DNA from: Gammaproteobacteria bacterium
Lineage (GTDB): Bacteria; Pseudomonadota; Gammaproteobacteria; Pseudomonadales; Cellvibrionaceae
Direction: 5' to 3'
Assembly: GCA_004172865.1 (NCBI GenBank)
Contig: SEBV01000010.1
Coordinates: forward strand, 62,001-126,000
DNA length: 64,000 nt
Shown: piece by piece, positions 41,893 through 63,106 of the stretch
How positions within the stretch are numbered: position 1 is the stretch's first letter
How the letters are laid out: every line of letters begins with the position of its first letter
Position numbers and translations under genes: made by a program
Notes under the pieces: generated by a model
The model's database searches: none
The model's input: only the letters and a program-made list of their open reading frames with translations
Told to the model about the DNA's origin: nothing

Positions 41893-42237
41893 TCAAGACA
41901 CATCTCGGATAATTTCCCTATCAAACTCAAATTTTTCTGAGCTTTTAATTATTTCAAATTGAAACTCAAAACGATCAGCAGCCTTATTCATTTCCATACG
42001 CATATCGTCTAGGGCGAATCGATATGCTGGATACAATTTTGTATGCCATAATTCAACGTCATCATGAGTTTTGGGATCGAAGCCTGCGTACACCACTCCT
42101 CGACAGCATCTCAAAACGTCCTCCTCAATCGTCCCGTAGATAACGTCAGGATGTGCGTAATGTGATGGCCTATAGATAAAAACGTATTTCGCAATTTTTG
42201 ACGAGAGAGAACGCGATAACAGATCTGAAAAATGCAT
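41893..42237 (-). CDS. Hypothetical protein
   Basis: About 114 residues from the ATG at 42237 (MHFSDLLSRSLSSKIAKYVF). The middle contains YAHPDVIYGTIEEDVLRCCR and the C-terminal helix is charged. No signal peptide, membrane segment or motif I know. Codon use looks coding across its length and there is no overlapping alternative. No RBS stands out. Confidence 0.5.
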   Translation of the reverse strand: MHFSDLLSRSLSSKIAKYVFIYRPSHYAHPDVIYGTIEEDVLRCCRGVVYAGFDPKTHDDVELWHTKLYPAYRFALDDMRMEMNKAADRFEFQFEIIKSSEKFEFDREIIRDVS

Positions 42238-42243
42238 AGCCAA

Positions 42244-42947
42244 ACCGTCCGATTTTAATGAAAGTCTCAGAACTCTTTTCCAAAGGCAAACTAATATGCC
42301 ACTTTTCTTCTTAAGCCTTTCGATTAATTACGCAGAGCTTCTATGCGACCCAGTTACGCTAATATGACATCGTTCTTCTTCAATACATTGTTGTTGATGA
42401 TGCGTTTTAGCACTATGAATGTAATGTCCGGACAAAAGTGAAGATTGTGTCCCAAGATGATTGCATATCGAACCGAATAAGCTGATTTGGAAAGATCTAA
42501 TTCATGCAAGGAAGCTATTGATTAATATTGACTAAAGTTTCAAAACCAAAAGTGATTCGGAATATTGAAAGACGTCTAGGTGAGATATTAGAGGAGGTGT
42601 CCAATTAAAATTATTAGCATAATGACACAATATGTCGTCGAGAAACCAAGTATAGGATTTAGCGGGAGTGGCATACTGTCTCTACAACAGTAACACTACC
42701 ATAGTATTGACCGTTCATGGAGATTATACCAGACCGTAGAGATCACCAGTTCACAAAACCATTTCAATACATATCACATTACGTGAGCTTCGATGCCACA
42801 AGATGCTGGCGCATAAAATATACCTATTTAATTCAAAAAATTATTCCTATCAGCTTACAGGAAAACTAATCCTCACGAATTCTGGTTTTGACCTATAGTA
42901 AATTGGAATGCAAATTTTTCGATGAAAGTTAATTTAGAATTACTTAT
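42244..42947. other. Long divergent intergenic region
   Basis: About 700 bp with no recognisable gene on either strand. It separates a hypothetical gene from three signalling genes and must hold their promoter. No repeat or RNA structure stands out. Confidence 0.4.
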
Positions 42948-45182: not shown

Positions 45183-45206
45183 CATTGTATTTCAGGAAGT
45201 ACAACT

Positions 45207-46832: not shown

Positions 46833-47095
46833 TATTAAAGCACTCTCTCACATTGAGCAGACCTGTTTATTTCCACAATACACGTGAGGGATTATTTAAG
46901 TAAGCTCTACATGTGCGACGAACATCGTCCGTAACAGTAATTGAGAGCCTATCAACCGCCCTCCTCTTACCGATATGTCGATCATGAGAATCTTGCGAAG
47001 GCAATTAAATTTAAGAAAAAATCAGCTATGTCATACCAGAATACTAAGCCAATAGCTTCAGCCGGTAAATTCATTCTAAAGCAAGGTTAAATGCT

Positions 47096-50000: not shown

Positions 50001-50143
50001 ATGCTCTCGCTGTAGAACAATTGATTAAAGATAATGCATCGACAATTGAACTTGAGAGTAGCTTCGAGAAATTACAACTAGAATTGACGGCGACTTTAGT
50101 AGCCGCAAAAAAATGGATGAGTGAAAATTCGAATATTGAATAA
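47096..50143 (+). CDS. Membrane hybrid histidine kinase with CHASE3, two receivers and Hpt
   Basis: 1015 residues. TM1 (about 11-29), a CHASE3 sensor (about 35-180, DAESGQRGYLLTQNPIYLEP), TM2 (about 183-207), PAS (about 220-345), HisKA with FVANMSHEIRTPLNAILG, ATPase (VNLTSNAIKFTARGEV, GTGLGLTISNRLAELMGG), a degenerate receiver (about 605-720, AVLLDWQTVSD), a canonical receiver (about 755-870, AILMDIQMPVMDGLTATTLI) and a C-terminal Hpt with ILHTLRGSLGILGAAKF. This is the layout of BarA-type phosphorelay kinases. No partner response regulator is nearby. Same strand as the two signalling genes upstream. Confidence 0.94.
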   Translation: MKKAIPKYIRLGFLCGLVIIALAAFLPYRNVQLLQNSERWTTHTMRVLQAADELRIAVTDAESGQRGYLLTQNPIYLEPYEIARKEISQQLISLSMLAADNPSQLENLNKLKELITQKFDELESTVALQNQGKREEALTLVTTNHGNSLMQEIREVTINFEKDEKELLNERVTTMRTHFQRTFYSVLFTTILTFLLFSSLYFFIIKSFKVKRTAELSLTQQSNLLTSVINSMSEGLFVIDAHGKCLAYNPMFTEIYGKSLPEFSLYEWETKYKISTVDGLAFAFENFPAVKVLKGEAQATAEMIIQPEHAKEPKIVRVNARPILNETGLIEGVVCISSDISDDKKAELRLRVTMEQAETANKAKSEFVANMSHEIRTPLNAILGMSHLLHKTELASAQKKYLDMIILSGKSLLNILNDILDFSKIEAGKMELCAIQFRLDDVIHSLATMMSMAALKKDIELIIDINRNVPALLTGDPHRLLQILVNLTSNAIKFTARGEVAVIIDCRAEIDNQVTMSFAVRDTGIGMTQEQQNKLFSAFTQADTSITRQFGGTGLGLTISNRLAELMGGHIELTSVPSQGSEFSLVLPFTRCDDIERRAFPRHPTYFNLLLIDNNESARHSIVNHINAWRWNVDIAISQDEGLDQLRKIAAKGERYDAVLLDWQTVSDMGIDAFSGVRVAASEKIPIILMVNMYAQEMLSENNLLDEKFSPFSLLLKPVISSSLFNTLNELLFHPSKTQEFLLDSDNFHKPLEKLRLLVVEDNEFNQIVARDILQQAGAIIDIASDGQKALDVLRNDTYTYDAILMDIQMPVMDGLTATTLIRKELHINTPIIAMTAGVTESERKLCLDCGMNDVIAKPIETEKLVSLVQLHTCKQAQAMQYQGMENITISPSVDGIFDVTNLLKIGEKTPGYRNKLAVMIKSLIDNTSNSFESAIISFKECEYSEVARILHTLRGSLGILGAAKFSEHALAVEQLIKDNASTIELESSFEKLQLELTATLVAAKKWMSENSNIE

Positions 50144-50302
50144 CATGTATATGAAGCGGATAACTTGGAGTCGTTCGTGGAGAAATACTATCGGTAAATT
50201 TCCAACATTATTCAGCCAGTCGAATTAAATCAAGCTGGCAATCTTAACTATGAAAAATCAAACTGCCCGTATTTTGAAATTTTCATTGTAAAAAATCCTA
50301 AT

Positions 50303-50512
50303 TTACTCTTCGATGCGAAATAATAAATTTCCATCTAGCGCAATTGCTTCATTTTTTTCGAAAGTTCCAATATAACTACAAGGAACGTTTGTTGTAAAAA
50401 CTTCATTTCCATTAACACGAAGCGAGATATCCCCAGATAAATCGTAAAGATACTCCCCATCAAAAACGCCAATCATGTTTCCATCGGAATCGTATACCTT
50501 TGGGTTTTTCAT
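50303..50512 (-). CDS. Small hypothetical beta-rich protein
   Basis: 69 residues from ATG 50512 (MKNPKVYDSDGNMIGVFDGE); AGGAGGAAATT upstream is a near-perfect RBS and decides this start. The segment YDLSGDISLRVNGNEVFTTN then YIGTFEKNEAI repeats short strands with G and D turns, suggesting a small beta fold. The family is not recognised. Convergent with the hybrid kinase. Confidence 0.6.
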   Translation of the reverse strand: MKNPKVYDSDGNMIGVFDGEYLYDLSGDISLRVNGNEVFTTNVPCSYIGTFEKNEAIALDGNLLFRIEE

Positions 50513-50551
50513 AATTTCCTCCTGAGGCGACACAATGTTAAATCTCGGCAA

Positions 50552-50832
50552 CTATTTAACGACGTTGAAAGTACTGTGTGAAGATAGAATCCACATTGAT
50601 CTGACGCGGGCAAATTAAAGCAGCGGATTAAGAATTGAAACGCTACGCCAAGTCATTACCATGTGATGTTACCGTAGAACATTGCACGCAACAATCCCTC
50701 CCTCTTGCCTGCATTGAAATGGATGATCCTAGACTGATCTGACTGCAATTGTGCCCGCTTTAAAAATCTCATTACCAAGCATTGGACTTCATTCAAGACC
50801 TACAACTTCTTCGATTTTGCGGGTGAGAGCAG
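50552..50832. other. Intergenic region
   Basis: About 280 bp with no gene recognised; leads into an IS481 relic. Confidence 0.3.
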
Positions 50833-51057
50833 CGAAACGCAGGCGGCTTAATATGTCGCAAATGCGGCATTTCCAGACCTACTCTCCGCAATTGGCTAAA
50901 GCGAGATGAGGAACAAGGCTTAGAAGGGCTTAATGACGTTTCTAAACGACCTCATAGTTCTCGGAATACTAAAATTGTCACCTAAGTTGAATCGTGGATT
51001 TTGTCGTTGCAAAAGGCACGTAAATTGTCACGAAAAAAAATGTGCAAAATAACTAGC
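50833..51057 (+). pseudogene. IS481-family transposase N-terminal relic
   Basis: One frame reads CRKCGISRPTLRNWLKRDEE, then QGLEGLNDVSKRPHSSRNTK, then a stop, then VESWILSLQKARKLSRKKM. This is the helix-turn-helix start of IS481-type DDE transposases. The catalytic core and both ends of the element are gone. Confidence 0.75.
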
Positions 51058-51097
51058 GATTTGTTTTTGCCGAATGGCTGCGTGCTACTTCGTTAAA

Positions 51098-51289
51098 TCA
51101 ACATATGGCAATCCTCATCAAATCCCCCGCCTGACTCCATCGTTCGTCAGGATAACAAAACTGATTGCTTATCAATTTAGTAACACCAATTGTAGTTCGA
51201 GCTGGCCAGTGATTGTGTCCATACAACCACATAGCGGGCTGATAAAAGTTGATTAAATCCAGGCAGTCAGCAGTAAAATATGATGTCAC
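51098..51289 (-). pseudogene. Metallophosphoesterase C-terminal fragment
   Basis: SYFTADCLDLINFYQPAMWL then YGHNHWPARTTIGVTKLISN matches the last metal-binding block (GHxH) and final strands of calcineurin-like phosphoesterases. The rest of the domain, with the D-x-H and GNH-type motifs, is not found upstream. Confidence 0.55.
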
Positions 51290-52082
51290 TAAATGCGGTT
51301 CGTATAACCGAACAAAATCCCTGATAGAGCTACCGATGCATTTTTCTAACGGCTACTTCAAAATTTAAAATACTAAAGTATTCATGATTAAATTCAATAT
51401 CAAACTTTACCTGATTGGAAACTTCTCCAGTTGTCTCTACGAACCGCATTTTCGAAGTATTTTCATTATTAAAATCTTCAGTTTGAAAATCCCTCTTTTT
51501 CAAAAATCTTCTAGTTGATGACTCGTCCACGCTCCGCGAAGAAACTCAAATGGAATGTTATCTGGAAGCTTCAACAATACTCCAATGGCATTGGACAGTC
51601 TTTCATTTGATCTCAGTGAAGTTTTTCAGAATGTATAAGAAACAGCAATATTCCCATCTGACCTACGATCATTAAAACTATTGTTTCTACAAAAACACTT
51701 ACTGGCTTCTTGCCCACAATCAACCTCCGTGATCTGCGTGTAGCAAAAGAGTAGTTCAAGACATCCCCACCTGAATATTTCTACAACGCGGCATAAATCT
51801 GCCCGAATGATGGGTCGAGATTCATTTTTTACCTCGGCGTTCGCTGCAAAAAATAATTCCAACAGTAATAATAATTAATTTCAATACAATTTGAGAAGCG
51901 GGATTTTGGCTAATCTCAGAGAATTTAGAGCTACAACAATAATTGCCGCAAGGGAAATTTCTTGCCGCTTTATTCGATAAAAATTTGATACTTTCGCCTC
52001 ATCAAACCGTTAGGCGCCTCAGTAGTGAGATCTTTGATGGCACGATCCATGCTCCAGTACAGTTACAACTACGGAGGCATAT
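51290..52082. other. Gene-poor region
   Basis: A minus-strand frame at 51330-51530 (MDESSTRRFLKKRDFQTEDF, GTG start after GCGGAG) could be a small gene but matches nothing I know. The frame at 51626-51862 is not convincing. The end carries TACGGAGG, the RBS for 52083. Confidence 0.3.
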
Positions 52083-52604
52083 ATGTTAACGAATAACCTT
52101 ACCAACAATCGTCTCGGCTCTCTACTTCAACAATCGGAACAGAAAGGAATTTCGCCTCTCGCCAAGCAGCATGGCATTGACAGCTCCAGTCCGGTCAAAT
52201 CTACGACAGGAACAGCTGCCAATGCGAGCACGACGACCAGTGCAAATTCGTCATCCAGGTGGTCTAAATTAGATCGTTTAGTTTCAGCTGCTGAAGCTGA
52301 TCCAACTTACGCTGAGCAGATGGCGAAAACTTATGCTTATGTTCCTGACAAGATGACATTGAATTGGGCAGACGCGCCCTCTCCCGCAAATGCAGAAGCT
52401 TTCGATGCGTGGGCAAACCAAAGCGTAACATTCGACAAAGAGGCTGAGCCCATTAATGCAAAACGAATTGAACTATACAATTCAATGAAATCAAATGGAT
52501 CATCGGATGTAGACGTTTTGAAAGCTATTTTGAATTTTAATAGCAATCAACCTGCGCAATACCAGATTAAGACAGGGTTTTGGAAATTGGACGTTACCGC
52601 ATAA
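52083..52604 (+). CDS. Hypothetical protein
   Basis: 173 residues. GGAGG sits eight bases before the ATG. About 1-60 is Ser/Thr/Asn-rich and low in complexity. About 60-173 looks folded: RWSKLDRLVSAAEADPTYAE, YVPDKMTLNWADAPSPANAE and SSDVDVLKAILNFNSNQPAQ. No signal peptide. The layout, a flexible N-terminus and a small C-terminal domain, is like some flagellum-, pilus- or effector-linked proteins, but I do not recognise it. It ends with a hairpin and stands alone. Confidence 0.65.
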   Translation: MLTNNLTNNRLGSLLQQSEQKGISPLAKQHGIDSSSPVKSTTGTAANASTTTSANSSSRWSKLDRLVSAAEADPTYAEQMAKTYAYVPDKMTLNWADAPSPANAEAFDAWANQSVTFDKEAEPINAKRIELYNSMKSNGSSDVDVLKAILNFNSNQPAQYQIKTGFWKLDVTA

Positions 52605-52619
52605 ATAACGCCCACATCA

Positions 52620-52639
52620 AATGCCCCTTTCGGGGCATT
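52620..52639 (+). terminator. Hairpin after the 173-aa protein gene
   Basis: AATGCCCC and GGGGCATT flank TTTC. It starts 15 bp after the stop, with only a weak T-rich tail. Confidence 0.65.
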
Positions 52640-52655
52640 CAGACTTTACGATTTA

Positions 52656-53167
52656 TTAATAATTAACAATTACTTGATCGGTTTGGCCGTATGCGACAGG
52701 AAAAATAGATCCAGATCCTGATACGGAAAATTTATAGACGAAGCTTGTATTGGCATTAAATCCAGACTAATTGCCTAATGAGCCAGTTTTTGCCGAAGAG
52801 ACATTTACGCAGTTGGTTCCATTCCAGCAAAGAAAAACTGTTAACCCAGCTGGAGTGGTTGAAAGGTTCCAGGAATAATTCACTGAGGTATGGTTGAACC
52901 TGTTGGAACGGTACCCACAACAGGTAACGTTAATGAATAAGTGACACCCTTATTTGTTAGAGTAGGTCCCGCCCCACTACTTACCCATGCTCCACCTGAT
53001 AACGCCACCAGTGGCCTTTCTGCGCTAGCTGCTGAAAGCTCCTCTGACGAAACCGAAATGTAAGATGCCTGGGGCGATTCTTTGTTCCCATCTGCAAATG
53101 AAACCGATGGTAATATGACAGCCGAAACAAAAAAAGCCGCAATAATTTTTTTAATATATTTTGACAT
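52656..53167 (-). pseudogene. FlhE-like exported protein, frameshifted
   Basis: A signal peptide (MSKYIKKIIAAFFVSAVILP, ending SVSFA) is followed by GGAWVSSGAGPTLTNKGVTY, then in another frame after about 52890 by VNYSWNLSTTPAGLTVFLCW. An in-frame stop interrupts near 52769, and the end is QTDQVIVNY with TAA at 52656-52658. These blocks match FlhE, a periplasmic protein tied to flagellar export. No flagellar genes are nearby. One shift and one stop make it non-functional. Confidence 0.72.
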
Positions 53168-53495
53168 TACCTTATCCTCAAATCCTAAGTTAATTTACAC
53201 ATTGAGCCATCTCAACGGGGGGCTAGTCTATAGAACATCGTTGCCATTAAAAGATTGTGATGCACCAGTGAAAAAATATTTTGCGATTCCATATTCTGTG
53301 CTATTTGAAAGGATTGGAACGTCAGCATGCTCACATTTGATACTGCGAGGCAGATAAACTTCCAATAATTTTCTTTGTTATTTCTATATTTCAATTAAAT
53401 CTATGAATTCAATTATGAAAACAGCGATTAATAGTCTCGCTAGGTTAAAAAATAAATTGCAAAGTTTTCAATAAATCACCGCCTTTGTCGTAGCG
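53168..53495. other. Intergenic region
   Basis: 328 bp, AT-rich, no gene recognised on either strand. It holds the promoter of the FlhE-like relic and ends at an IS21-type inverted repeat. Confidence 0.35.
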
Positions 53496-53646
53496 TGTTG
53501 ATTTGCGTTTGGAATTGACCCACTTTTGCATTGAATTTTGAGCCAAAGGAAATAATTTCAAAGCTATGTGCGTGTTGAGTTGTTCTGCTTCTATTATGGG
53601 TCAATTTCGGATATAAAAGTGGGCCAAACTACAGTGCAAGTCAACA
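53496..53646. mobile_element. 151-bp IS21-like deletion relic or MITE
   Basis: The left end reads TGTTGATTTGC (53496) and the right end GCAAGTCAACA (to 53646), giving inverted termini TGTTGA(T/C)TTGC. Inside, ACCCACTTTT and AAAAGTGGGCC continue the symmetry. TG-starting termini followed by tandem GACCCACTTTT-type sites resemble IS21-family ends. The istAB genes are absent and no target duplication is visible. Confidence 0.5.
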
Positions 53647-53807
53647 GACTGTAAAAATTTTCCAAACCAGTGGTGCGTTTGACATCTATAATAAATACGA
53701 CATTTCGCTATCAGACAATTAATTCGGCTTGATGCTTTTCCAAATTCAGATATCAATTAGAGAATTTCGAAGGCGGTTTGACACTAGAAACACTCGATCA
53801 AAATTTT

Positions 53808-54248
53808 CTAGCCATGAGTTATTCCTCGCACTTCATCCAATGCAGCACGCAAAACCCGCGCAGGATCAATCTCTAGGATGTCTTGGGGAGATTTTCCCCC
53901 TAAAAATCCGTTAGCGCTCGCGAACCAGTACGCAATGCCCCAGCTATCTTTCTTTCCAAGAAATAATTCTATTATTGGCTTTAAGACTTCGGCGGGTTGA
54001 TATCCGTTTTGCGCATCAAAAGCGTACACTGGATAAAGCTCTTCAGATAAGTAGTTAACGCTGAAGATCTTTTGTGCAGCTTTCCACTTCGTGACAACAG
54101 CACTTTTATCGGAGGACTCGATTTGAGCCAACTTTTCAATAGTAAGCGCAGAGATCCATCGGGTCGATTTGATAACTTTTTCTTGCGCTTTTTCAATCAT
54201 TTTGTTCTCACGCACAGAGGTAGGAACATTAGTAGAAGCTGTTTGCAC
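53808..54248 (-). CDS. DUF2384 (Xre/MbcA/ParS toxin-binding domain) protein
   Basis: 146 residues from a GTG at 54248; AGGAGG ends five bases upstream and decides this start over more distant ones. The C-terminal ~60 residues contain YPVYAFDAQNGYQPAEVLKP, IAYWFASANGFLGGKSPQDI and LEIDPARVLRAALDEV, the DUF2384 block used by MbcA/ParS-type antitoxins to hold RES-family toxins. No helix-turn-helix is clear in the N-terminal part and no RES toxin gene lies on either side. It may be an orphan or a regulator of a distant target. Confidence 0.72.
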   Translation of the reverse strand: MQTASTNVPTSVRENKMIEKAQEKVIKSTRWISALTIEKLAQIESSDKSAVVTKWKAAQKIFSVNYLSEELYPVYAFDAQNGYQPAEVLKPIIELFLGKKDSWGIAYWFASANGFLGGKSPQDILEIDPARVLRAALDEVRGITHG

Positions 54249-54908
54249 ATTGCCTCCTGACACATATTTATCAGATACCGGAAAAATTATCTGAGAAAAA
54301 AACGAATGATCTGAGTAAAACAATTGCTGTGACGATGTAGCTAAAACATTAGACGGCAATCTAAGTCGAAGCTCTACCTAATTTTCATCACTCGTCAGGT
54401 AGGAAAACTGATCGCATTAGAATTCAATGACAACTACACACTTGTAGGCTCAAATTCTAACTCAGACATATTTGATTAGTCGAGACGAGGAGAAATAGTC
54501 GTCAGGTCTAGGAGTAGTTGTCGAAATCTTAAGTTATTGTATAAATTACATAACTCTAAAAGTTAAACCTTATTCAGTGTCAGTGGGAATTACAAGGCCC
54601 TCTAGCATCGATAAAACTTGTTTTAGAAATTATTATGACAATCAATTCAAGTGCGCTATTAACGAATAAGAAACGATGTTGGCGTTGTGATTTGAACACC
54701 TATGCGTCGAGTCATACCCTAATAACTCCAACAGTGCGAATAATTGTGTAAGCTCAATGACTATTCTTAATTATGAATTCGATTAAGATAAATGGATTCA
54801 AACATCTAAGCAGGAGTAGCACGCCCAAACATTTAATTTTTTGATCGGTTACAAAGAAGTCGTAGTGATTTATTTTTATTCTTACTGCTAATTAAAAAAG
54901 CAATCCCG
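54249..54908. other. Gene-poor region
   Basis: 660 bp with frequent stops in every frame. No repeat, RNA gene or coding relic recognised. It ends at a strong terminator. Confidence 0.4.
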
Positions 54909-54951
54909 AAACCCGCAACGCTGCAAAGTATTGCGGGTTTTGTCTTTTCTT
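54909..54951. terminator. Rho-independent terminator
   Basis: AAACCCGCAA and TTGCGGGTTT flank a 12-nt loop, followed by TGTCTTTTCTT. No gene is recognised on either strand just upstream, so it may be left from a lost gene. Confidence 0.7.
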
Positions 54952-55040
54952 AGTCGCGATTTTATCCAGCCATTTACGGTGTGTCTTCGTCGCGGGTGGA
55001 CTAACGACAGCCAATGTCCTCGCTACTTAATGCTTAACGT

Positions 55041-55214
55041 TCAGCGCGTCGAGCAATTCCCCACTCCACTTTGATCATGCTCCGGCAGCTTGGAAGCCGC
55101 CTCGGCGTGATGCAGCAATGACGCTGCTTCGCTTCGCCTAGCCTCATCAAATACCCTGTCTTGCAAAACAGCGATGTAAGCGTCAGCCAAAACCTTACTA
55201 CCAACGCCCTGCAC
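55041..55214 (-). CDS. Short unidentified reading frame, probably a gene fragment
   Basis: 57 codons from a GTG at 55214: GVGSKVLADAYIAVLQDRVF then DEARRSEAASLLHHAEAASK. The helical, alanine-rich composition and locally higher GC look more coding than neighbouring sequence. No family recognised and no RBS is clear. It lies between the terminator at 54.9 kb and the tns operon and may be a relic. Confidence 0.25.
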   Translation of the reverse strand: MQGVGSKVLADAYIAVLQDRVFDEARRSEAASLLHHAEAASKLPEHDQSGVGNCSTR

Positions 55215-55405
55215 ATTTTTACTGCAAGGCCACTGCGTAGTCCTTTCACAACGGAGTCAAGAGGTGACGTTACCGTGAAAAAGCTTCAAATTTACTTACA
55301 CGCGAAATAACCGACATTTTTTTGAACGCGATATTCAATGCCCCTATCGATTTGTCATGACTCAGCGTTTGAGAAAAATGGGGCAAAATTTTTATTCGAT
55401 AAAGG

Positions 55406-55440
55406 TGTCAGGCGAATTATTTATTAGAGAATTCTCTAAT
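55406..55440. repeat. Palindrome and candidate (weak) transposon end upstream of tnsA
   Basis: 55423-55440 is an 18-bp perfect palindrome (ATTAGAGAATTCTCTAAT). Starting at TGT (55406), TGT..GG and TTAGAGA occur in the same register as in the good terminus at 63028 (TGTGGGG ... TTAGAGA at positions 19-25). The 5 bp outside (AAAGG) do not match the other flank (TTAGC), and the overlapping site series expected of a Tn7 right end is absent. This may be a coincidence or an operator. Confidence 0.25.
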
Positions 55441-55674
55441 GAGATTCGGGAGGCTGCTTAAGATAAAAAGGTGTAAGCCTTTGATTTACAAAGGAAATTT
55501 ATTTACTATTTATAAGAAAAACGGACATAATATAACGATAAATATATAAATGTCAATATTTTGAAGGCATTTTTTTCTTGCAAAGTGAAAAAAAAGCAAA
55601 TAACCTAAGGAAGACTGTATGACTTTGTGCTTAACGAAAAGAGGAAAAAATATGAAATAACGAAGCGTGCGGGG

Positions 55675-55719
55675 CGTGGATTGAGGAAGAGCAGCATTAG
55701 CAGTGCTGCTCAATCCACG
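55675..55719 (+). promoter_or_regulatory. Long two-part hairpin in the tns leader region
   Basis: CGTGGATTG (55675-55683) pairs with CAATCCACG (55711-55719), and AGCAGCA (55690-55696) pairs with TGCTGCT (55704-55710) around the loop TTAGCAG. The left arm has a 6-nt bulge, AGGAAG. No T-tract follows, so it is not a simple terminator. It is 171 bp before the tnsA start and could be an RNA leader structure or a protein site. Confidence 0.5.
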
Positions 55720-55842
55720 AGCATAATCGACCAGAAGATGCGTTCCCTCTAATTATACCCTCCTCCCCCCAAAAAAAACAACATTTTTTTACGGGATCTT
55801 TTTGCCTAAAGAAAAGAGACCTTCAATTGGAGAGCTACGAAA

Positions 55843-55893
55843 ATGATCAATAAAATAATAATACCTAAGTGTTCTATGAGGGCTGCAATATGA
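55843..55893 (+). CDS. Possible 16-codon leader peptide coupled to tnsA
   Basis: ATG 55843, with GGAGAG thirteen bases upstream, opens MINKIIIPKCSMRAAI. Its TGA at 55891-55893 overlaps the tnsA ATG (55890-55892). The stop-start overlap matches the coupling seen at tnsA/tnsB (TAATG). Such leaders can couple or attenuate translation; this is inferred from layout only. Confidence 0.3.
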   Translation: MINKIIIPKCSMRAAI

Positions 55894-56711
55894 AGCTGCC
55901 GACTATCACAGACACAACGATCAAGAAAATAACGGCATGGAAAGCGCTCGTGAACGCTGGCGGCACCCACCAGCCGTTCGTCCGAGTATCAGATGTTCGA
56001 AAGATGGGCCGTCGTTTTTTGTTTTTTTGTCCCAAACAAAAGCGCCCTGTGCACTTGTTGAGCGGAGGCGAGTACCGTGCGTATCAAATGCTGATCTGGC
56101 TACCGTCTACATTAAAAATAAATGAACAGACGCCGCTAGACCTAAATCAAACCTTGAAAATATCGGCAGAGCTGGGCTTTCTACATCCCAGGGATTGGAA
56201 AGAAAATACAGCGCATGTCATGAGTACCGATTTTCTCGTTACTGCCCTCAATCGTGAGACGAAGCAAGCGCACAAAGTTGCCTATAGTTTCAAATATTCT
56301 AACCAGCTTTACAGACTCAATAATGGCGAACTAGAGCGACATAAATTACGGACTTGGCAGAAGCTTGCCATCGAAGCAGAGTATTGGCGCCAGCGCGGAG
56401 TGGAATATCGAATCATCACCGAGAAAGATGCTACGAAACATTTATGCATTAATTTGGATTGGTTCAAAACAGAGTATGACGTGAATGTATCGGAAGCCGA
56501 ATTAAAAGATTTCTGCTTTTTATTCATTGAAAGCTGGAAAAGCAATAATAAGTTGCGAATCGAACATCATCTTAATTTCATTCGTGGCCGACTGAATATC
56601 AGTTTCAAACATGCGCAAAGTATATTTAAGTACGCTGCGCTATATAGGGTACTGCCCCTAGATCTTTCTACGAGACTGATGCTCAACACTCCTGTTAAGG
56701 TGGTGTTGTAA
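55890..56711 (+). CDS. tnsA: TnsA-like transposase endonuclease
   Basis: 273 residues from ATG 55890 (MKLPTITDTTIKKITAWKAL), with GAGGG upstream; a GTG at 55869 is less likely. The N-terminal nuclease domain shows the restriction-fold residues: Glu61 in GGEYRAYQMLIW, Asp114 in MSTDFLV and Lys135 in AYSFKYS, spaced as in Tn7 TnsA (Glu63, Asp114, Lys132). A C-terminal winged-helix part follows (about 165-273). TnsA cuts the 5' strands at the transposon ends, so with TnsB it allows cut-and-paste movement. The stop overlaps the tnsB start. Confidence 0.9.
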   Translation: MKLPTITDTTIKKITAWKALVNAGGTHQPFVRVSDVRKMGRRFLFFCPKQKRPVHLLSGGEYRAYQMLIWLPSTLKINEQTPLDLNQTLKISAELGFLHPRDWKENTAHVMSTDFLVTALNRETKQAHKVAYSFKYSNQLYRLNNGELERHKLRTWQKLAIEAEYWRQRGVEYRIITEKDATKHLCINLDWFKTEYDVNVSEAELKDFCFLFIESWKSNNKLRIEHHLNFIRGRLNISFKHAQSIFKYAALYRVLPLDLSTRLMLNTPVKVVL

Positions 56712-58891
56712 TGTTTTATATTAACCAACACATTTACAGCGAAAACCATAAGATAAGTTTACGAGTTTGCTACGTATCCTCTTTACTGAAGAGAGTCGCA
56801 CTCGCCGACATGAACGAGGCGCTTACCAGTAGAAAGATCAAGAAACCGTTGGCGAAGACATTTGGTGAGCTTAGCGCGTTTATAAAATCGCATAATGCGG
56901 AAGTAAAGCAATTCTCGCTTCCGCTTGAGATAAATAAATCAGATAACGAACTGAGAAAAAGTGGAAAAGATCACTGGATTGCTCGGCGTGATGCTTCCAT
57001 GAACTTGCTCAAGGATCTTATCGAACCAGAGGTGATGGAAAAGTATTTGTTTGTGAGTAGCATCTCCAGCGAAATTGAAACGGCAATCAGTAGTCACGTC
57101 ATCAGCAGCAAAAGCTACGTTTATAACCTGCTAAATCGTTACATTACTTTCGGGTGTATTGCGAATGCCTTGCTGCCTTTCAAGTTTCGTAATGTGGGAA
57201 AAAATTATCTTCATAGCAATAACGAAAAAAACATCAAGCGCGGACGAGGCGGAAAAAATAATGAAAACTCTCGATCGAAAACCAAAGGTATAACAAAAGA
57301 GGTAAAGAATCAGATTATTGCTGTGTTCAATTACGTCAAAAAGCAAAAATATAAAAGATTAATCATTACGAAAATTTTTGAAGACTATCAAAAAGTTTTT
57401 GAAAACCAGCAAATATCCAGACCGGGATTTTCCAGCGTATCGAAAACGATTCCAGAGACTGAAACCATTTCATATGCTCAGTTTTATTATCACTTCAAGC
57501 TACTCATCAGCAGAGAGAAGTTTTATCGTGCCGCCTATGGTGATGTGACCTTCGAAAAAGATTTTGCTCCTCGATCGGGCGTTGCTCGGGATGGTGTCAT
57601 CGGACCGTCGCATCGGTATGAAATCGACTCGACCGTGCTTGATATCTACGTACGTTATCCCTACGACATAACCGGTCGCTACACTATGGGCCGCCCAATC
57701 TTCTACGTCGTTGTAGATACGTACAGCACTTGCATTGTAGGTTTCTATATCGGTTTTTCCGGTCCGAACTGGACTGGAGCCAGCGAAGCACTCGTAAATG
57801 CATGCATGGATAAAGTGGAGTTTTGCGCACAATACGGTATTGAGATTACCGAAGACGATTGGCCTTGCTCGCATATTCCAATCGAAATCGCAATGGATAA
57901 TGGCACGGAGTATTCGCAAGGCGCAAATATCAATTTGCTGCAATCCATGGTCGGTATTCAAGCGGCAATTTATCTGGCCCTATACAGAGGTGATGCTAAA
58001 GGTGTTTGTGAAAGGAAGTTCGGCGTAGTCAACGATGAATTTGTCCATTTTGAAGCGGGCGCAATCTTCAAGGAAACGCGTAGAGAAGATAGTCACGCAT
58101 CGAACGATGCTTTATGGGATCTCGATGCACTCAAAAAAGTATTGATACAAGAAATTCTCTACCACAACAAAACTTCAGAGCGATTGAGATTACATAACTT
58201 CGATCTCTCTGAAAATCAGGTAGGTATTACACCGGTCGCTATCTATAAATATTCTATTGATCGAGAAATGAATGGCGGCAGAAAATCAACCCCTGAAGAC
58301 ATTCTAAAACTACGGTGGGCGCTTCTTGAAGAACTCGAAGCGACGGTTGAAGAAAAAGGGGTTCGACTCCAAGGCGTTCATTACGACTGCGATTACATAC
58401 GTGAACACGGGTGGACAACACGCGCTTCCTTGCAAGGAAATTTTAAAGTGTTCGTTCGTCGCAGTCGTGCGTCGACAAACTGTATTTGGTATCGCACCGA
58501 CTCCGAAGAAATCATTACGCTGGATATTAAGGAATACGATTCAGAAAGATATGCTAATCAGCACTGGGAATGTATTTTACATCGCATCGAAGAATACAAA
58601 AATCAACAGCATGATCTGGCAATTGAACGACGTATAGCGCGCGCAAAGCGCGACGATTTTAAAAATGAACAGCGAGATATTCAACAGGAAATTTTAAACC
58701 AAGCCCCTGAAAATACGCGGAAATCCCCGCAACCGAACATCAAGGAGCGCAATGCGATCGGGGCTGCAATAAGTGATTTGGAAGTTGTGAAAGGCTTCGT
58801 CACAGCGTTCAACAGCCGCAATCCAAACAAAAACTTAACATCAAATTCAGTTCCAGAACTAAATATTGATGACGAAATTTATAATTCATAA
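56711..58891 (+). CDS. tnsB: TnsB-like DDE transposase
   Basis: 726 residues with a retroviral-integrase-type core. The DDE residues are Asp306 (YEIDSTVLDIYV), Asp396 (IEIAMDNGTEY) and Glu434 (GVCERKFGVV). The N-terminal 290 residues contain the basic DNA-binding region, with a KRGRGGKNN linker near 176. After the core lies a beta-barrel (about 560-640) and a charged C-terminal tail that in Tn7 contacts TnsC. TnsB binds the end repeats, cuts the 3' strands and joins them to target. The ATG overlaps the tnsA stop (TAATG). The repeats at 62892-63021 are its likely sites. Confidence 0.95.
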   Translation: MFYINQHIYSENHKISLRVCYVSSLLKRVALADMNEALTSRKIKKPLAKTFGELSAFIKSHNAEVKQFSLPLEINKSDNELRKSGKDHWIARRDASMNLLKDLIEPEVMEKYLFVSSISSEIETAISSHVISSKSYVYNLLNRYITFGCIANALLPFKFRNVGKNYLHSNNEKNIKRGRGGKNNENSRSKTKGITKEVKNQIIAVFNYVKKQKYKRLIITKIFEDYQKVFENQQISRPGFSSVSKTIPETETISYAQFYYHFKLLISREKFYRAAYGDVTFEKDFAPRSGVARDGVIGPSHRYEIDSTVLDIYVRYPYDITGRYTMGRPIFYVVVDTYSTCIVGFYIGFSGPNWTGASEALVNACMDKVEFCAQYGIEITEDDWPCSHIPIEIAMDNGTEYSQGANINLLQSMVGIQAAIYLALYRGDAKGVCERKFGVVNDEFVHFEAGAIFKETRREDSHASNDALWDLDALKKVLIQEILYHNKTSERLRLHNFDLSENQVGITPVAIYKYSIDREMNGGRKSTPEDILKLRWALLEELEATVEEKGVRLQGVHYDCDYIREHGWTTRASLQGNFKVFVRRSRASTNCIWYRTDSEEIITLDIKEYDSERYANQHWECILHRIEEYKNQQHDLAIERRIARAKRDDFKNEQRDIQQEILNQAPENTRKSPQPNIKERNAIGAAISDLEVVKGFVTAFNSRNPNKNLTSNSVPELNIDDEIYNS

Positions 58892-58906
58892 TAATAAGGA
58901 GTGCCC

Positions 58907-60310
58907 ATGCAAATCACCAATTACATTAAACACCCAATCGAGGAATTTAATAATAATCCTCTAACCGAATCACTTCAGGTTATCGAAACTAAAGTCGAGA
59001 TTACCCAACTGCTTACGAGAGTTCCTACAACTGATATCGATAACTTAAGTTCATTTTATCGCAATGCAAGAATAGGACAGTTACGAAATTTACACATTCC
59101 ACACCATTGCAGCGAATTCATGTACCACAAAATTATGGAATTGATCCTTTGTGGCTATTCTACAAAAAATCCGCTGGATTCCAAAATGACGAGAGCGATG
59201 TATAGTGTAGCAAATTCTGCTAAGGACAAGAACTACCTCACTAATGGCGTACCCGAGTTAACAACGGCCCCATCATGTCTCGCACATGGACCATCGGGTA
59301 GTAGCAAAAGCACGACGATCAGAAATACGTTATCACTCATTCCGCAATTAATCAGGCATACCAGTTACAACAACGTTCCCTTTCGACAAGATCAACTTGT
59401 TTGGATCTCTTTCGATTGTGCAGCAACCGCCTCTCCCAAAGCACTTGCGCTAAATTTTTTCAAAGCTGTTGATAAGGTTTTAGGCACAAATTATTACGAC
59501 ATATGGCTCACGAAAAATAAGCTATCCGTAGAAGCTCACTTTGGAAATATGCAACTCATTGCAATTACACACTGTGTGGGTTTTGTTCACATTGATGAAT
59601 TGCAATTTCTATTGTCGTACGCCCGCACAAAAGACTCCCCGACCCTTCAAACCATCGAAGCCCTCTTTAATAAAATTGGTATCCCAGTATTACTAACAAC
59701 GACATCTGCGGGGCTAGGCTTATTTAAAAGTACAGAACCTGCTATGGGAAACATTCCAAATCTAACGACACCTAGAAGAATGCTGAGTGAGCACGAATTC
59801 AAGTTCAACGCATTCTCACTACAAAGCGACGAATTCAACAGACTTTACGATGCGTTGTATCCGCCTGGCTTGTGCGTCGGCAGAGTTCTGCCTGGCGCGG
59901 ACTTTAAAAAATGCTTTCATTCGCTATCGGCCGGTCTACCGGCAGTAATGACACGGCTGGCCAGACTTAATCATGAGTACATATGGAGATTGGCTAAGAA
60001 AGAAACTGGAGATGAGCAATTTTTGGAGGGGATTTACAAAAGCCAATTCAGCATCATTAACGAAGCTTTAAAGCATCTTAAAAACGGAGATATTAAAGGT
60101 TACGAAAATGCAGTGCCCCGTGGAAAAAATGGCAATCCTATTTGGACAAATGATGACGCAAAACAAGAAGAGTCGGAGAAAGTTCCAAAGGTAGTGCCGA
60201 GCATTGAAGATGAGTCTAGAGATGCACCATTGGAAAAAGGCGAGGATCCATTGGCGATTGGTGTTGGCTTAAATGATTCGCATAATAAGGAGTTAGCAAA
60301 TGAAAAATAG
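58907..60310 (+). CDS. tnsC: TnsC-like AAA+ ATPase
   Basis: 467 residues from ATG 58907, after AAGGAG. Walker A GPSGSSKST (about 128-136) and Walker B FVHIDELQF (about 226-234) are intact, followed by TTTSAGLGLF, a sensor-1-like Ser/Thr strand. The C-terminal ~60 residues are acidic and disordered. TnsC filaments on DNA, receives the target signal from TniQ or TnsD and activates TnsA/TnsB. It starts 15 bp after tnsB and overlaps the next gene by 11 bp. Confidence 0.95.
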   Translation: MQITNYIKHPIEEFNNNPLTESLQVIETKVEITQLLTRVPTTDIDNLSSFYRNARIGQLRNLHIPHHCSEFMYHKIMELILCGYSTKNPLDSKMTRAMYSVANSAKDKNYLTNGVPELTTAPSCLAHGPSGSSKSTTIRNTLSLIPQLIRHTSYNNVPFRQDQLVWISFDCAATASPKALALNFFKAVDKVLGTNYYDIWLTKNKLSVEAHFGNMQLIAITHCVGFVHIDELQFLLSYARTKDSPTLQTIEALFNKIGIPVLLTTTSAGLGLFKSTEPAMGNIPNLTTPRRMLSEHEFKFNAFSLQSDEFNRLYDALYPPGLCVGRVLPGADFKKCFHSLSAGLPAVMTRLARLNHEYIWRLAKKETGDEQFLEGIYKSQFSIINEALKHLKNGDIKGYENAVPRGKNGNPIWTNDDAKQEESEKVPKVVPSIEDESRDAPLEKGEDPLAIGVGLNDSHNKELANEK

Positions 60311-61274
60311 AATCACTTTTTACCCAACCCCCTTCCCTGATGAACATATTCTAGGGACTTTGGCGAGGTGGCATTCAATGTTGGATAGACGGACTTTTTT
60401 AAAATCGATCGCTGAGCTAACGTCAAATGCATTTGCAATCAATCCAGGTTGCATATGGCGACTTGTTTACCGCGATCTCTTCGGCATTTACGAAAGTCAA
60501 TTCGCAGCGGAAAAATTTTTGCGTCATACATTGTGGCATTATTATTTACCATTTCATCACGAAAAGCAGGACATATTATTTGTCAGCGAAAATGTAGAAC
60601 TCAAAAAGCTGAATCCTACAGAGCAAATTCGCATAAAAACGGCGCGAAATTGGCGATGGTGCCACCTCTGCGCGCGTGAAGACATGGATAAATACGGAAC
60701 AACCTATTGGCATGCCTCGCAGCAAGTGCCTTCGATCATCCATTGCCATAAGCATGGTGGAAGGCTTATATATTCTTGCAGTCATTGCGGATTCAATTCG
60801 ATGGATCTTGCAACATTGCTCTTACCACCCACTGAAAATAAATGCCCAGCGTGCAAAGCCAAATTCGACACGACCGAAGTGAATAATCCTATTGTGAAAT
60901 GGATGGAGGCAATTACTGGAAAATTAATTTTTTCGCCAAAAGCCAATGCTATATCAGAGATTAAAAAAATCTTGATTGAGAAAGCTAATTTACCGCAATC
61001 ACATCAACGAGTTCCAAGTAAGGACTCTCGACAGATGGCGAGCATTCAGTCCGAATTTGATAAATTTTTGTATGGAAGTCAAATTGTAGAGCATTACTTT
61101 CAGTTTCCATCGAAAAATTTAGGCCCACGCGCGCCTTATTTACAAGTTCCCTTGATGCTTTACTCGGAAACTTTCTTTCCACCCCTCTATTATCTCCTGC
61201 TAATGAAATCCCTTATAAAGGACGACAGCGAGTTGGAACATATTTTAGTAGAAAAGGAAAACTTCTATGCGTGA
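60300..61274 (+). CDS. tniQ: TniQ-family target-selection protein (first copy)
   Basis: 324 residues starting MKNRITFYPTPFPDEHILGT. The TPFPDEHILGTLARWH segment is the TniQ N-terminal signature. A zinc region follows: Cys121/Cys124 (CHLCARED), Cys149/His152 (HCHKH), Cys160/Cys163 (CSHC) and Cys182/Cys185 (CPACK). There is a short C-terminal helical part but no long DNA-reading domain, so it is closer to compact TniQ than to TnsD. TniQ links a target-recognition factor to TnsC. No Cas complex is present, so its target factor is unknown. It overlaps tnsC by 11 bp and the next gene by 8 bp. Confidence 0.92.
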   Translation: MKNRITFYPTPFPDEHILGTLARWHSMLDRRTFLKSIAELTSNAFAINPGCIWRLVYRDLFGIYESQFAAEKFLRHTLWHYYLPFHHEKQDILFVSENVELKKLNPTEQIRIKTARNWRWCHLCAREDMDKYGTTYWHASQQVPSIIHCHKHGGRLIYSCSHCGFNSMDLATLLLPPTENKCPACKAKFDTTEVNNPIVKWMEAITGKLIFSPKANAISEIKKILIEKANLPQSHQRVPSKDSRQMASIQSEFDKFLYGSQIVEHYFQFPSKNLGPRAPYLQVPLMLYSETFFPPLYYLLLMKSLIKDDSELEHILVEKENFYA

Positions 61275-62775
61275 CGTAGGAAGAGTAGCGACATTTGTGA
61301 ATATATTTTTAGGCGAAACTGTTTATAGCATTCTCGCAAAGCTGTGCAAAATAGCAGGATTTCCCTCAACAGATGAAACACTTAAGCATGTAGAGCTAGC
61401 GCCACACTGCCAACTCGACTCGGACTTACCCGGTTTTATCCCCCCAATCGCGAAAATGACAGGCATGTCTGGAAAAGAAATACTTGATAATCACTGCGTT
61501 ATAAATTATTTCAAGGTGTTTTCAAAACGGGAGGTATTTACAGCTGCGGAAGCATCACTTTTAAACGGAAAATCAAGTGATATACATGCAAGGCTTTCTT
61601 TGATTTCTAATCGAACTGGAAAACACGAAAATTTGTACTATTGCTTTTCGTGTGCAAAAGAAAGTTTCGATACATACGGTATGTCTTATTGGCATCGAGA
61701 GCATCAACTTCCTGGTGTATCGGCTTGTCTGTTACACCAGTTAGAACTATTACAGGTTGAAAGATGCAGAAAAAATCCAAAGTTACCACCAAGTGAAGTG
61801 AACACTGAGTCACCGAAAAAGTGTTCAATAAAAGCGGAGCTGCTAGCCTCTCTAAGTAAGAGCTTACTCCTTGGGACGCTCCCGGAACATTTGGATCCCT
61901 CCAAAGTAGTACTGACTTACTGGCTTCGTTTGCGAGATTCAGGCTTCACAACAAAAAAAATGCGTATCAGACAAAGGGTTCTGAGACAGGAATTGCTAAA
62001 ATTCTGGTGCGATGTGAGTGCAAACAAGGCTATTGCTTCGGTATTTTCAGACCAGGCAGTACATCCATTCCCACAAAATATGTTTTACCGGACCAGCACT
62101 CATCACCCATTGAAGCACCTTCTTCTTATTGGGTTTTTATTCGGTGACCTTGAGAGCTTTTATCACGCGTACAACCTTGCAGAAGATCCAGAAGAAGATA
62201 TTGCGGGCTGTGAGGCAAAGAATTCAGAAATGAACGCGAAATTAAATCGCAACCAAGGTGCCTTAGAATTACTAAGGGACGGACACAGCCTGAGAAAAAC
62301 AGCGCAGATGATGGGTGTCAGTGTTGGATATGTAAAAAAAGTCGCACTGTCCAACCATCTCCCTGTAAAAATTCGCCCCAAAAAAATATATAAGACTGAA
62401 ATTCGGACTATATGGCGCAAGCTTTATATCGGGGAAAGTACAGAGAAAATCGCAAAACAGTTTTCAATTTCTGTGGCGGCTGTAGAACATATTTTATCGA
62501 CGCATGCTTATCTACCGGAGCTACGAACAAAAATTCGTTTCTTTAAGATGCGAAAAATGCACCGTGAAAAAATGAAGGAATACATGACAGGAAATTCCAC
62601 AACAACACGCAACCGGATCAGGTTGGAACTCGGGGCCAGTTATATATGGCTTTTTAATAATGATAAATCATGGCTGTATGAAAACTTACCTGCACGTGTT
62701 CCTACTACCCGTAAATCCAATATTGAAAAAACACCTCAAATTTCCACATTGGAAAATGCTCTTCAACCAAAATAG
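61267..62775 (+). CDS. tnsD: TnsD-like TniQ-family protein with C-terminal helix-turn-helix repeats
   Basis: 502 residues. The N-terminal part (FLGETVYSILAKLCKIAGFP) is a diverged TniQ start. Zinc ligands are Cys126/Cys129 (YYCFSCAKE) and Cys154/His157 (ACLLH). The C-terminal half has two helix-turn-helix segments: about 328-365 (ALELLRDGHSLRKTAQMMGV then SVGYVKK) and about 378-415 (GESTEKIAKQFSISVAAVEH). This is the layout of TnsD, which reads a fixed chromosomal site and recruits TnsC. Its likely target is beside the element end near 63.03 kb. It overlaps tniQ by 8 bp and is the last gene of the operon. Confidence 0.92.
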   Translation: MRDVGRVATFVNIFLGETVYSILAKLCKIAGFPSTDETLKHVELAPHCQLDSDLPGFIPPIAKMTGMSGKEILDNHCVINYFKVFSKREVFTAAEASLLNGKSSDIHARLSLISNRTGKHENLYYCFSCAKESFDTYGMSYWHREHQLPGVSACLLHQLELLQVERCRKNPKLPPSEVNTESPKKCSIKAELLASLSKSLLLGTLPEHLDPSKVVLTYWLRLRDSGFTTKKMRIRQRVLRQELLKFWCDVSANKAIASVFSDQAVHPFPQNMFYRTSTHHPLKHLLLIGFLFGDLESFYHAYNLAEDPEEDIAGCEAKNSEMNAKLNRNQGALELLRDGHSLRKTAQMMGVSVGYVKKVALSNHLPVKIRPKKIYKTEIRTIWRKLYIGESTEKIAKQFSISVAAVEHILSTHAYLPELRTKIRFFKMRKMHREKMKEYMTGNSTTTRNRIRLELGASYIWLFNNDKSWLYENLPARVPTTRKSNIEKTPQISTLENALQPK

Positions 62776-62830
62776 TCTTCTTTTTTTCCGCTCAAGCAAC
62801 ACACGTTTAGTGACACCGTATCTATGTTAA

Positions 62831-62866
62831 AAAACTCCGGTTTTTTCTTAAAAGCCGGAGTTTTTT
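62831..62866 (+). terminator. Rho-independent terminator of the tns operon
   Basis: AAAACTCCGG and CCGGAGTTTT flank a 14-nt T-rich loop, followed by TT. It lies 55 bp after the tnsD stop and inside the element. Confidence 0.85.
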
Positions 62867-62891
62867 CAACTAAAAAAAAGCATAATTTAGC

Positions 62892-63028
62892 AATCTCCAA
62901 CTTAATTAAAACTGAGACAAAATTTTTTTCTTGTTTTTTGGATATAATCTCTAACTTAATTAAAAATATTGCGTTTTAAGTCATTGATTTTAAATAGGCG
63001 AAATCTCTAACTTAATTAAAACCCCACA
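62892..63028 (-). repeat. Tn7-like transposon end with three spaced TnsB-type sites
   Basis: AATCTCTAACTTAATTAAAA occurs at 62946-62965 and 63002-63021; the copy at 62892-62911 differs at one base (C for T). Spacing is 54 and 56 bp. Beyond the outermost copy comes CCCCACA, so reading inward from 63028 the terminus is TGTGGGG then TTTTAATTAAGTTAGAGATT. Tn7 also begins TGTGGG, and its left end has three well-separated TnsB sites. The first 5 bp outside are TTAGC (63029-63033), the expected target-duplication length. Confidence 0.82.
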
Positions 63029-63073
63029 TTAGCTTTAGCTGTAGCATACGAGGTTATTAAAAACTTAGACAAA

Positions 63074-63106
63074 AATAGGCCTCCAAACTGGAGGCCTATT
63101 TTTTTT
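63074..63106. terminator. Bidirectional rho-independent terminator
   Basis: AATAGGCCTCC and GGAGGCCTATT flank AAACT, with eight T on the plus side and a T-run on the minus side as well. It lies between the transposon end and the CDF gene, and on the minus strand it can end that gene's transcript. Confidence 0.85.

What the first reader, a model, noticed from the sequence alone, without database searches (positions are those of the whole stretch)
55406..63028. Compact Tn7-like element with two adjacent TniQ/TnsD-family selectors and no CRISPR, tnsE or cargo
tnsA, tnsB, tnsC, a compact tniQ and a larger tnsD-like gene overlap in one operon, and all key catalytic residues are present. Two TniQ-family genes side by side without any Cas gene suggest either two target pathways or a TniQ/TnsD pair that acts jointly. 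If the left end is near 55.4 kb the element is only about 7.6 kb and carries nothing but its own machinery.
Basis: partly seen in the sequence, partly recalled or inferred. Interest (0 to 1): 0.85.

Follow-up and report, generated by a model that had tools for sequence, protein, structure and literature searches.

The report
Giant gcvP-homing Tn7-like transposon, two selectors
This is the machinery end of a very large jumping DNA element, not a tiny one; it sits beside the gene gcvP and carries two target-choosing proteins, and a cousin found in a transferable plasmid suggests how such elements travel between cells.

Summary
The operon is real: tnsA-tnsB-tnsC-tniQ(324 aa)-tnsD(502 aa), 55869-62775, with an end of three TnsB-like sites closing at 63028. 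The "7.6 kb, no cargo" reading is wrong: no second end was found near 55.4 kb. The only matching array found in the genome (one mismatch) lies on another contig, 8 bp after the gcvP stop, beside the same 5-bp duplication (TTAGC). In the three closest relatives gcvP is followed by a gene pair that here lies right of 63028. The element is therefore at least 126 kb, split by an assembly gap, and the rest of the window is cargo (with defence systems further left).

Relatives show a family: 24 of 27 loci keep intact tniQ and tnsD behind tnsABC; in 21 of 27 genomes checked the operon lies downstream of gcvP in our orientation, once as an intact 124-kb element. No paper found in my searches names gcvP as a Tn7 site. 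A clade member sits, with a perfect duplication, in conjugative plasmid pAsa4, away from gcvP and with no annotated cas or tnsE.

Most likely TnsD homes to gcvP while TniQ serves a plasmid-directed pathway (inferred). Dual TniQ-TnsD elements are already known (Faure 2023).

The parts
1..55868 (.). cargo of the element (part of about 118 kb on contig C30 left of tnsA): Ku, LigD, BrkB-like protein, transporters, isoamylase, DUF72, chemotaxis receptor and others
   Evidence: inside the two ends as placed; Pfam; GC 0.413 for C30:1-125028 against 0.444 to the right; paralogues of window 13501-33500 elsewhere in the genome
55869..56711 (+). tnsA, endonuclease (the start may be the ATG at 55890)
56711..58891 (+). 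tnsB, DDE transposase
58901..60310 (+). tnsC, AAA+ ATPase
60300..61274 (+). tniQ, core-only selector/adaptor, 324 aa
61267..62775 (+). tnsD, selector with HTH-containing C-terminal part, 502 aa; presumed gcvP reader
62893..62911 (+). TnsB-like site, inner, left-type end
62947..62965 (+). TnsB-like site, middle
63003..63021 (+). TnsB-like site, outer; the element closes with CCCCACA at 63028
63029..63033 (.). target-site duplication TTAGC; the other copy is on C197 just before TGTCTCC, 4-8 bp after the gcvP stop
63071..63103 (+). hairpin with T run outside the element, perhaps the native gcvP terminator
   Evidence: z -7.8; the consensus scan did not report it

Best explanation
The operon is the left-end machinery of one giant Tn7-like transposon of at least 126,142 bp: C197:310105-311218, an assembly gap of unknown size, then C30:1-125028 (which is window 1-63028 plus 62 kb to its left). 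It inserted just after the gcvP stop codon with a 5-bp duplication. TnsB binds three close-set sites at the gcvP end and three spread sites at the far end; TnsA and TnsB cut and join; TnsC links them to the target (by analogy with Tn7). The small TniQ is a second adaptor to TnsC without a DNA-binding extension of its own and most likely serves the other half of the Tn7 lifestyle, insertion into transferable plasmids: that the clade reaches a plasmid is shown by one lineage; that TniQ does it is inferred. My odds for the steps: one giant gcvP element 0.9, TnsD as reader 0.85, TniQ as plasmid selector 0.5.
For: Right-type array only at gcvP on C197 and left-type array only at 63 kb here, apart from one lone site on C91 (one mismatch); identical TSD TTAGC; one tnsB of this family in the genome; the gene pair right of our end lies 1.6, 4.1 and 12.9 kb after gcvP in the three closest relatives, same strand; GC step; same end layout on one contig in the 124.1-kb L124 element with TSD GCCCA. 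Family: gcvP on the same contig, upstream, same orientation in 21 of 27 genomes; end-like repeats right after the gcvP stop in 23 of 24 flanks by eye. TniQ retained intact in 24 of 27 loci and under purifying selection. Plasmid pAsa4 element: TnsD 42% and TnsB 48% identical to gcvP-inserted L143, TSD GATCT, no gcvP match in the 28.8 kb read.
Against: The contigs are not joined and share no overlap. The gene pair is absent from the other 14 of 17 flanks compared, some of them short. A convincing TSD was found in only 4 of 24 gcvP loci. gcvP was on another contig in 4 of 27 genomes, only weakly matched in one and in opposite orientation in one. The plasmid case is a single lineage of three records, and its plasmid gene table is incomplete. 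No experiment links TniQ to plasmids.
Confidence: 0.75

Rival explanations
1. TniQ and TnsD act jointly: both sit on the TnsC ring as a hetero-pair at gcvP, TnsD supplying DNA recognition and TniQ a second contact with TnsC, with no second pathway.
For: Both genes kept together in 24 of 27 loci with correlated divergence (r 0.78 over 300 pairs of 25 loci, not corrected for relatedness); a solved Tn7 complex is titled TnsC-TnsD-DNA 7:2:1 (8glw), so two selector cores can sit on one ring; no recurrent extra selector gene between gcvP and tnsA (at most 7 of 23 sets).
Against: A clade member sits precisely in a conjugative plasmid away from gcvP, which needs a second way in or a TnsD off-target event; TniQ diverged much more than its neighbours between L119 and L141 (57% against 85-98%); Tn7 itself homes with TnsD alone as selector (established knowledge).
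Confidence: 0.3
2. Two elements, not one: the C197 end belongs to a different insertion and our element's other end is lost or elsewhere.
For: The contigs are not joined; kin can sit in tandem (two operons 27 kb apart behind gcvP in G375).
Against: Only one array of each type found in the genome at one mismatch, one tnsB of this family, identical TSD, relatives' synteny.
Confidence: 0.08
3. Compact 7.6-kb element with its left end near 55.4 kb, as first read.
For: A TGT at 55406 with AT-rich sequence behind it.
Against: No site array there, no matching TSD, and the matching end lies at gcvP.
Confidence: 0.02
4. TniQ is the remnant of a CRISPR-guided element: it once paired with, or still borrows in trans, a Cascade.
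For: Core-only TniQ resembles I-B CAST TniQ (8fcu, 1e-4); the branch of CAST I-F element Tn7017 is described as dual tniQ-tnsD elements mostly lacking Cascade (PMC10293859, passage); 7 of 27 family genomes have a Csy3 gene somewhere.
Against: No Cas7 of types I-B/C or I-F in our genome; none of the 7 Csy3 genes is on the contig that bears the element; TniQ is under purifying selection in two pairs, although one of those four genomes searched, L120's, and L130's do have a Csy3 elsewhere.
Confidence: 0.12

Closest known systems
Dual TniQ-TnsD Tn7-like transposons (998 loci in Faure et al. 2023, PMC10293859)
   Same: small TniQ plus larger TnsD beside tnsABC; usually one protein over 400 aa and one substantially smaller
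   Different: here the attachment gene (gcvP) is shown for a clade, a clade member is shown in a conjugative plasmid, and one element exceeds 126 kb; whether these loci are among the 998 was not checked
Tn7017 (EasCAST) branch, type I-F3 CAST with two TniQ proteins (PMC10293859, PMC11406308, passages)
   Same: dual tniQ-tnsD; the branch is said to lack Cascade mostly
   Different: Tn7017 targets parE; ours gcvP; sequence kinship was not tested
E. coli Tn7
   Same: TnsB and TnsC are the closest solved relatives; three spread and three or four close-set end sites; insertion beside a conserved gene
   Different: attachment site glmS (established) against gcvP; TnsE as plasmid selector there, not searched for here; tns operon here at the left-type end, far from the attachment gene
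[quoted passage not shown]
   Same: same gene order, 3+3 sites, same clade as gcvP-inserted L143
   Different: 16.9-18.0 kb, in a conjugative plasmid, not at gcvP; TnsB 31% identical to ours
Tn6022 with TniQ+TnsF (PMC10293859, section 11 read)
   Same: small TniQ used as hub for a further selector
   Different: targets comM; TnsF was not searched for here, and no recurrent partner gene was seen on the gcvP side

Membership tests
Tn7-like transposon | TnsB DDE transposase with TnsA and TnsC | tested here: met
Tn7-like transposon | TniQ/TnsD-family selector | tested here: met
   two genes
Tn7-like transposon | subterminal arrays of about 20-bp inverted repeats at both ends, 5-bp TSD | tested here: met
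   three sites each on C30 and C197, TSD TTAGC; contigs not joined
Dual TniQ-TnsD Tn7-like elements | one small TniQ and one TnsD over 400 aa in the same operon | tested here: met
   324 and 502 aa
CRISPR-associated transposon (CAST) | Cascade or Cas12k encoded by the element | tested here: not met
   no Cas7 I-B/C or I-F in the genome; other Cas types not searched; part of the element lies in an assembly gap
Canonical Tn7 | attachment site glmS | tested here: not met
   inserted at gcvP
Canonical Tn7 | TnsE plasmid selector | not tested
   no TnsE model was run on the genome; no tnsE was noticed in the operon
Tn7017 branch | parE attachment site | tested here: not met
   inserted at gcvP
Tn7017 branch | TnsC/TnsB kinship with Tn7017 | not tested
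   no Tn7017 sequence was at hand
gcvP-homing clade (defined here) | TnsD kin at about 24-35% identity with an end-like array directly after gcvP | tested here: met

The most novel reading that the evidence does not exclude
A clade of Tn7-like elements whose second selector is a bare TniQ that directs insertion into conjugative plasmids without Cas, TnsE or TnsF, by reading a plasmid or replication feature itself or through a host factor, while its partner TnsD homes to gcvP. This would be a further kind of plasmid pathway beside TnsE and CRISPR guidance, in elements that reach over 120 kb.
Probability: 0.35. Interest if true: 0.75.

Novelty: new variant of a known kind. Interest (0 to 1): 0.55.

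Why it matters
It turns a supposed miniature element into one of the larger Tn7-like transposons (published medians 14-29 kb, longest 140 kb; PMC8649781, passage), gives a clade a chromosomal address (gcvP), and shows a clade member without annotated cas or tnsE transposed precisely into a conjugative plasmid. What the small TniQ does in dual TniQ-TnsD elements without Cas is open; the small natural members found here (about 3.4-5.7 kb between gcvP and tnsA, with one to three ORFs of 80 aa or more) make that question directly testable.

Tried and rejected
Compact 7.6-kb element: rejected (no end array, no TSD). The repeats at 62893-63021 as a mini-CRISPR: considered for their 54-56 bp spacing, rejected because the same sequence stands inverted and close-set at gcvP and kin ends show the same layout. 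CAST: no Cas7 found. A recurrent third selector gene: none between gcvP and tnsA in more than 7 of 23 sets (only about 20 kb of that side was read in L124 and L136; the tnsD side was not clustered). Relatives in viral contigs and phage records: none. Overlaps of the C197 end and C30 start with each other or with other contigs: none. Cation-efflux gene as attachment gene: rejected, no orthologue in relatives (best 28% identity over 28 genomes including our own). Consensus promoter/terminator scan: nothing. NCBIfam hit HTH_Cbp1 of TnsD: 23.9 bits against a cut-off of 140, HTH part only. TSDs: convincing in 4 of 24 gcvP loci; in the other 20 nothing convincing within 1.5 kb after tnsD; tandem insertion or later change is possible but not shown (L131 gave a candidate without sites at its left end). 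Rows dropped: L126 (tnsABC in pieces), L134 (contig edge) and L142 (no tniQ) were left out of alignments A4/A5; of the 64 loci only L119-L145 were counted for retention of both genes, the others being more distant, partial or differently built. In L121 and L136 tnsB is split into two ORFs. Of the plasmid TnsD/TnsB hits only three listings' best rows were followed.
Full report
WHAT IS THERE. The window is G000:C30:62001-126000 of a 5.25-Mb, 229-contig genome. Five + strand ORFs form one operon: tnsA, tnsB, tnsC, tniQ (324 aa), tnsD (502 aa). TnsB matches solved Tn7 TnsB (2e-46) and TnsC solved Tn7 TnsC (9e-21); the DDE residues are present. TnsC's Walker A has Ser for Gly, as in two kin.

THE RIGHT-HAND END. 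Three direct copies of ATCTCTAACTTAATTAAAA (one with a mismatch) stand at 62893, 62947 and 63003 (3 found, 0.08 expected). The element closes at 63028 with CCCCACA, followed by TTAGC. A strong hairpin with a T run follows at 63071-63103 (z -7.8), then a cation-efflux gene without an orthologue in relatives.

THE OTHER END IS NOT AT 55.4 kb. No inverted copy lies in the window or, as an array, on C30:1-126000. A genome-wide search of the 15-base core at one mismatch gives, besides these three and one lone match on C91, a single array of three inverted copies on C197:310112-310165. It starts 8 bp after the gcvP stop: TAA TTTTTAGC TGTCTCC. The five bases before TGT are TTAGC, the same as after 63028. 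Spacing is 21 and 18 bp there and 54 and 56 bp here, like the close-set and spread arrays of Tn7 ends (recalled; PMC8649781, section 6 read, gives three left and four right sites). C197 ends 1.1 kb further on; its end and the start of C30 share no overlap with each other or another contig.

EMPTY-SITE EVIDENCE. I compared the C30 right flank with the gcvP downstream regions of 17 relatives (15 of the genus, 2 of the order; 1.9 to 80 kb each). Three hold the ORF pair that here lies at C30:131482-133162: G008, G004 and G017, the three with the highest gcvP identity (94-96%), at 4.1, 1.6 and 12.9 kb after gcvP, same strand. The other 14 do not; the only further matches were weak ones (34-38%) to G010. 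No tns gene of this family was found in the gcvP regions fetched from relatives. So gcvP and the right flank of C30 are native neighbours and the insertion lies between: at least 1,114 + 125,028 = 126,142 bp. GC is 0.413 in C30:1-125028, 0.444 in C30:125029-245000 and 0.450 before the gcvP end on C197; the 10 kb just right of the end are still low.

CARGO. PADLOC and Pfam give, left of the window, a Lamassu-type lmuABC set, a PifA-like KAP NTPase, a PDC-S28 helicase and a UvrD/GajB-like helicase (20 proteins scanned of 82 ORFs listed); in the window Ku, LigD, a BrkB-like protein, transporters, isoamylase, DUF72 and an MCP (10 proteins). Parts of window 13501-33500 have paralogues at 65-79% elsewhere in the same genome (C2, C132, C197), and those on C2 look syntenic with G008:C1:1819-1840 kb, so the copies here look acquired.

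THE FAMILY. A TnsD profile (ours plus two of G375) found 64 loci in one genome each of 84,980 species and none in viral contigs. Of the 27 nearest (L119-L145), 24 have intact tniQ and tnsD ORFs behind tnsABC; L126 has both but tnsABC in pieces, L134 is at a contig edge, L142 lacks tniQ. gcvP was sought in 27 genomes (25 of these loci plus L149 and L153; L128 and L134 not searched). In 21 it lies upstream on the same contig (contig lengths equal those) in our orientation; in four it is on another contig (L129, L132, L139, L145); L142's genome gives only a weak match; in L153 it lies beyond tnsD in the opposite orientation. L128 and G375 show gcvP upstream too. Of 24 gcvP 3' flanks printed, 23 show, by eye, end-like repeats that start within about 35 bp of the stop (weaker in L126, L128, L130); in L141 they start about 115 bp away. 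TSDs with sites at both ends were found in 4 of 24: ours, L122, L124, L138. L124 (Marinimicrobium agarilyticum) is the clearest: one contig, TSD GCCCA, C11:3779-127914 (124.1 kb), and its only six sites on the 146.7-kb contig (up to 3 mismatches) are three at each end. Large size is thus natural in this family, as is small size (about 3.4-5.7 kb between gcvP and tnsA in L131, L125, L141, L128, L123, L121).

THE TWO SELECTORS. Models: TniQ (pLDDT 86.8) is core only, best solved matches Tn7 TnsD(1-318) and I-B CAST TniQ; TnsD (84.4) is the same core plus an extra helical part with HTH domains. dN/dS is 0.15 and 0.17 for TniQ and 0.16 and 0.13 for TnsD in the two pairs that could be estimated well. 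In a quick tree of 70 sequences all 25 family TniQs lie on one side of a branch (support only 65); the 25 TnsDs lie on the other in two groups with the 20 outside sequences. That hints at an old pair rather than fresh duplications, unlike the repeated in-situ duplications proposed by Faure et al. Between two Aliagarivorans elements TnsA, B, C, D are 98, 92, 85, 86% identical but TniQ 57%; the drop covers tniQ and the first 300 bp of tnsD: replaced or fast-evolving. No gene between gcvP and tnsA recurs in more than 7 of 23 sets, so no element-encoded partner of TniQ is evident there.

A SECOND PATHWAY. The conjugative plasmids pAsa4 and pAsa4b carry tnsA-B-C-tniQ-tnsD (tniQ is annotated shorter in pAsa4). 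The pAsa4 element is 16.9 kb (18.0 in pAsa4b) with a perfect TSD GATCT and 3+3 sites; no gcvP match lies in the 28.8 kb read (the rest of the plasmid was not searched). Its TnsD is 42% and TnsB 48% identical to L143, itself at gcvP. No cas or tnsE is annotated in it, from an incomplete gene table; two hypothetical proteins gave no Pfam hit. So the clade uses gcvP and also reaches plasmids. That TniQ does the latter is inference, in line with the two-pathway lifestyle described for CASTs with two TniQ proteins (PMC11406308, passages). It rests on one plasmid lineage, three records.

KNOWN OR NEW. Faure et al. 2023 (PMC10293859; sections 10 and 11 read, other passages) counted 998 dual TniQ-TnsD loci and proposed direct targeting by TnsD and indirect by TniQ with a further selector. 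Its Tn7017 branch is described as dual tniQ-tnsD mostly without Cascade; whether our clade belongs there I could not test. Searches for Tn7-like with gcvP or with glycine dehydrogenase found no paper; Tn7 with gcvP gave nine, none relevant by title in the listing; Tn7-like with glycine cleavage gave two, of which the Benler hit is a remark on merA (passage) and the other was seen as a listing only. The library holds open papers only and supplements were not searched, so the address may stand in a table. Benler et al. give a longest element of 140 kb (passage), so the size is at the high end, not a record.

VERDICT. The element is a new variant of a known kind: a giant, gcvP-homing dual TniQ-TnsD Tn7-like transposon.

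Noticed in passing
L006 (G000:C34, about 163-170 kb) and L007 (G000:C91, about 141-146 kb): Two further, unrelated TniQ-bearing transposon operons in the same genome: one with a 629-aa TnsB, two tnsC-like ORFs and a 711-aa TniQ-domain protein, one with an 813-aa TnsA/TnsB-like ORF, tnsC and a 372-aa TniQ.
   Followed up: no
L119 and L141 (Aliagarivorans), tniQ: tniQ (57% protein identity) is far more diverged than its neighbours (85-98%) between two otherwise close elements: module swap or fast evolution.
   Followed up: partly
L109+L108 (G375:C4:2118814-2152164): Two dual TniQ-TnsD operons stand in tandem, about 27 kb apart, behind one gcvP.
   Followed up: partly
G013:C1:1674790 onward (L066): In a same-genus genome gcvP is followed by repeats resembling the right ends of L126/L128/L130, but no tns gene of this family was found in the 59 kb beyond: perhaps a solo end.
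   Followed up: partly
L153 (Paraglaciecola arctica), 9012-17367: tniQ and tnsD followed by gcvP in the opposite orientation to all linked kin, although its close relative L149 has the usual orientation.
   Followed up: no
G406:C445, G410:C195, G414:C7, G415:C17: Csy3 genes with markedly lower scores (199-222 bits against 466-529 in three other genomes) in genomes that hold this family, on other contigs: possibly transposon-associated type I-F variants.
   Followed up: no
G404:C1:56724, 80609 and 89997 (L127): Two full gcvP genes and a short gcvP C-terminal fragment on one contig around the element.
   Followed up: no
L182 (Amphritea atlantica), 5345-10360: gcvP followed by a 114-aa TnsD-like fragment: apparent remnant of a lost element.
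   Followed up: no
window 10625-12670: Short neighbouring ORFs on both strands look by eye like fragments of larger enzymes, suggesting decay within the cargo (not searched).
   Followed up: no
L131 (Halobacteriovorax MAG), 1704-2819: A compact member (about 3.4 kb between gcvP and tnsA) carries a reverse-transcriptase-like gene as its main cargo.
   Followed up: no
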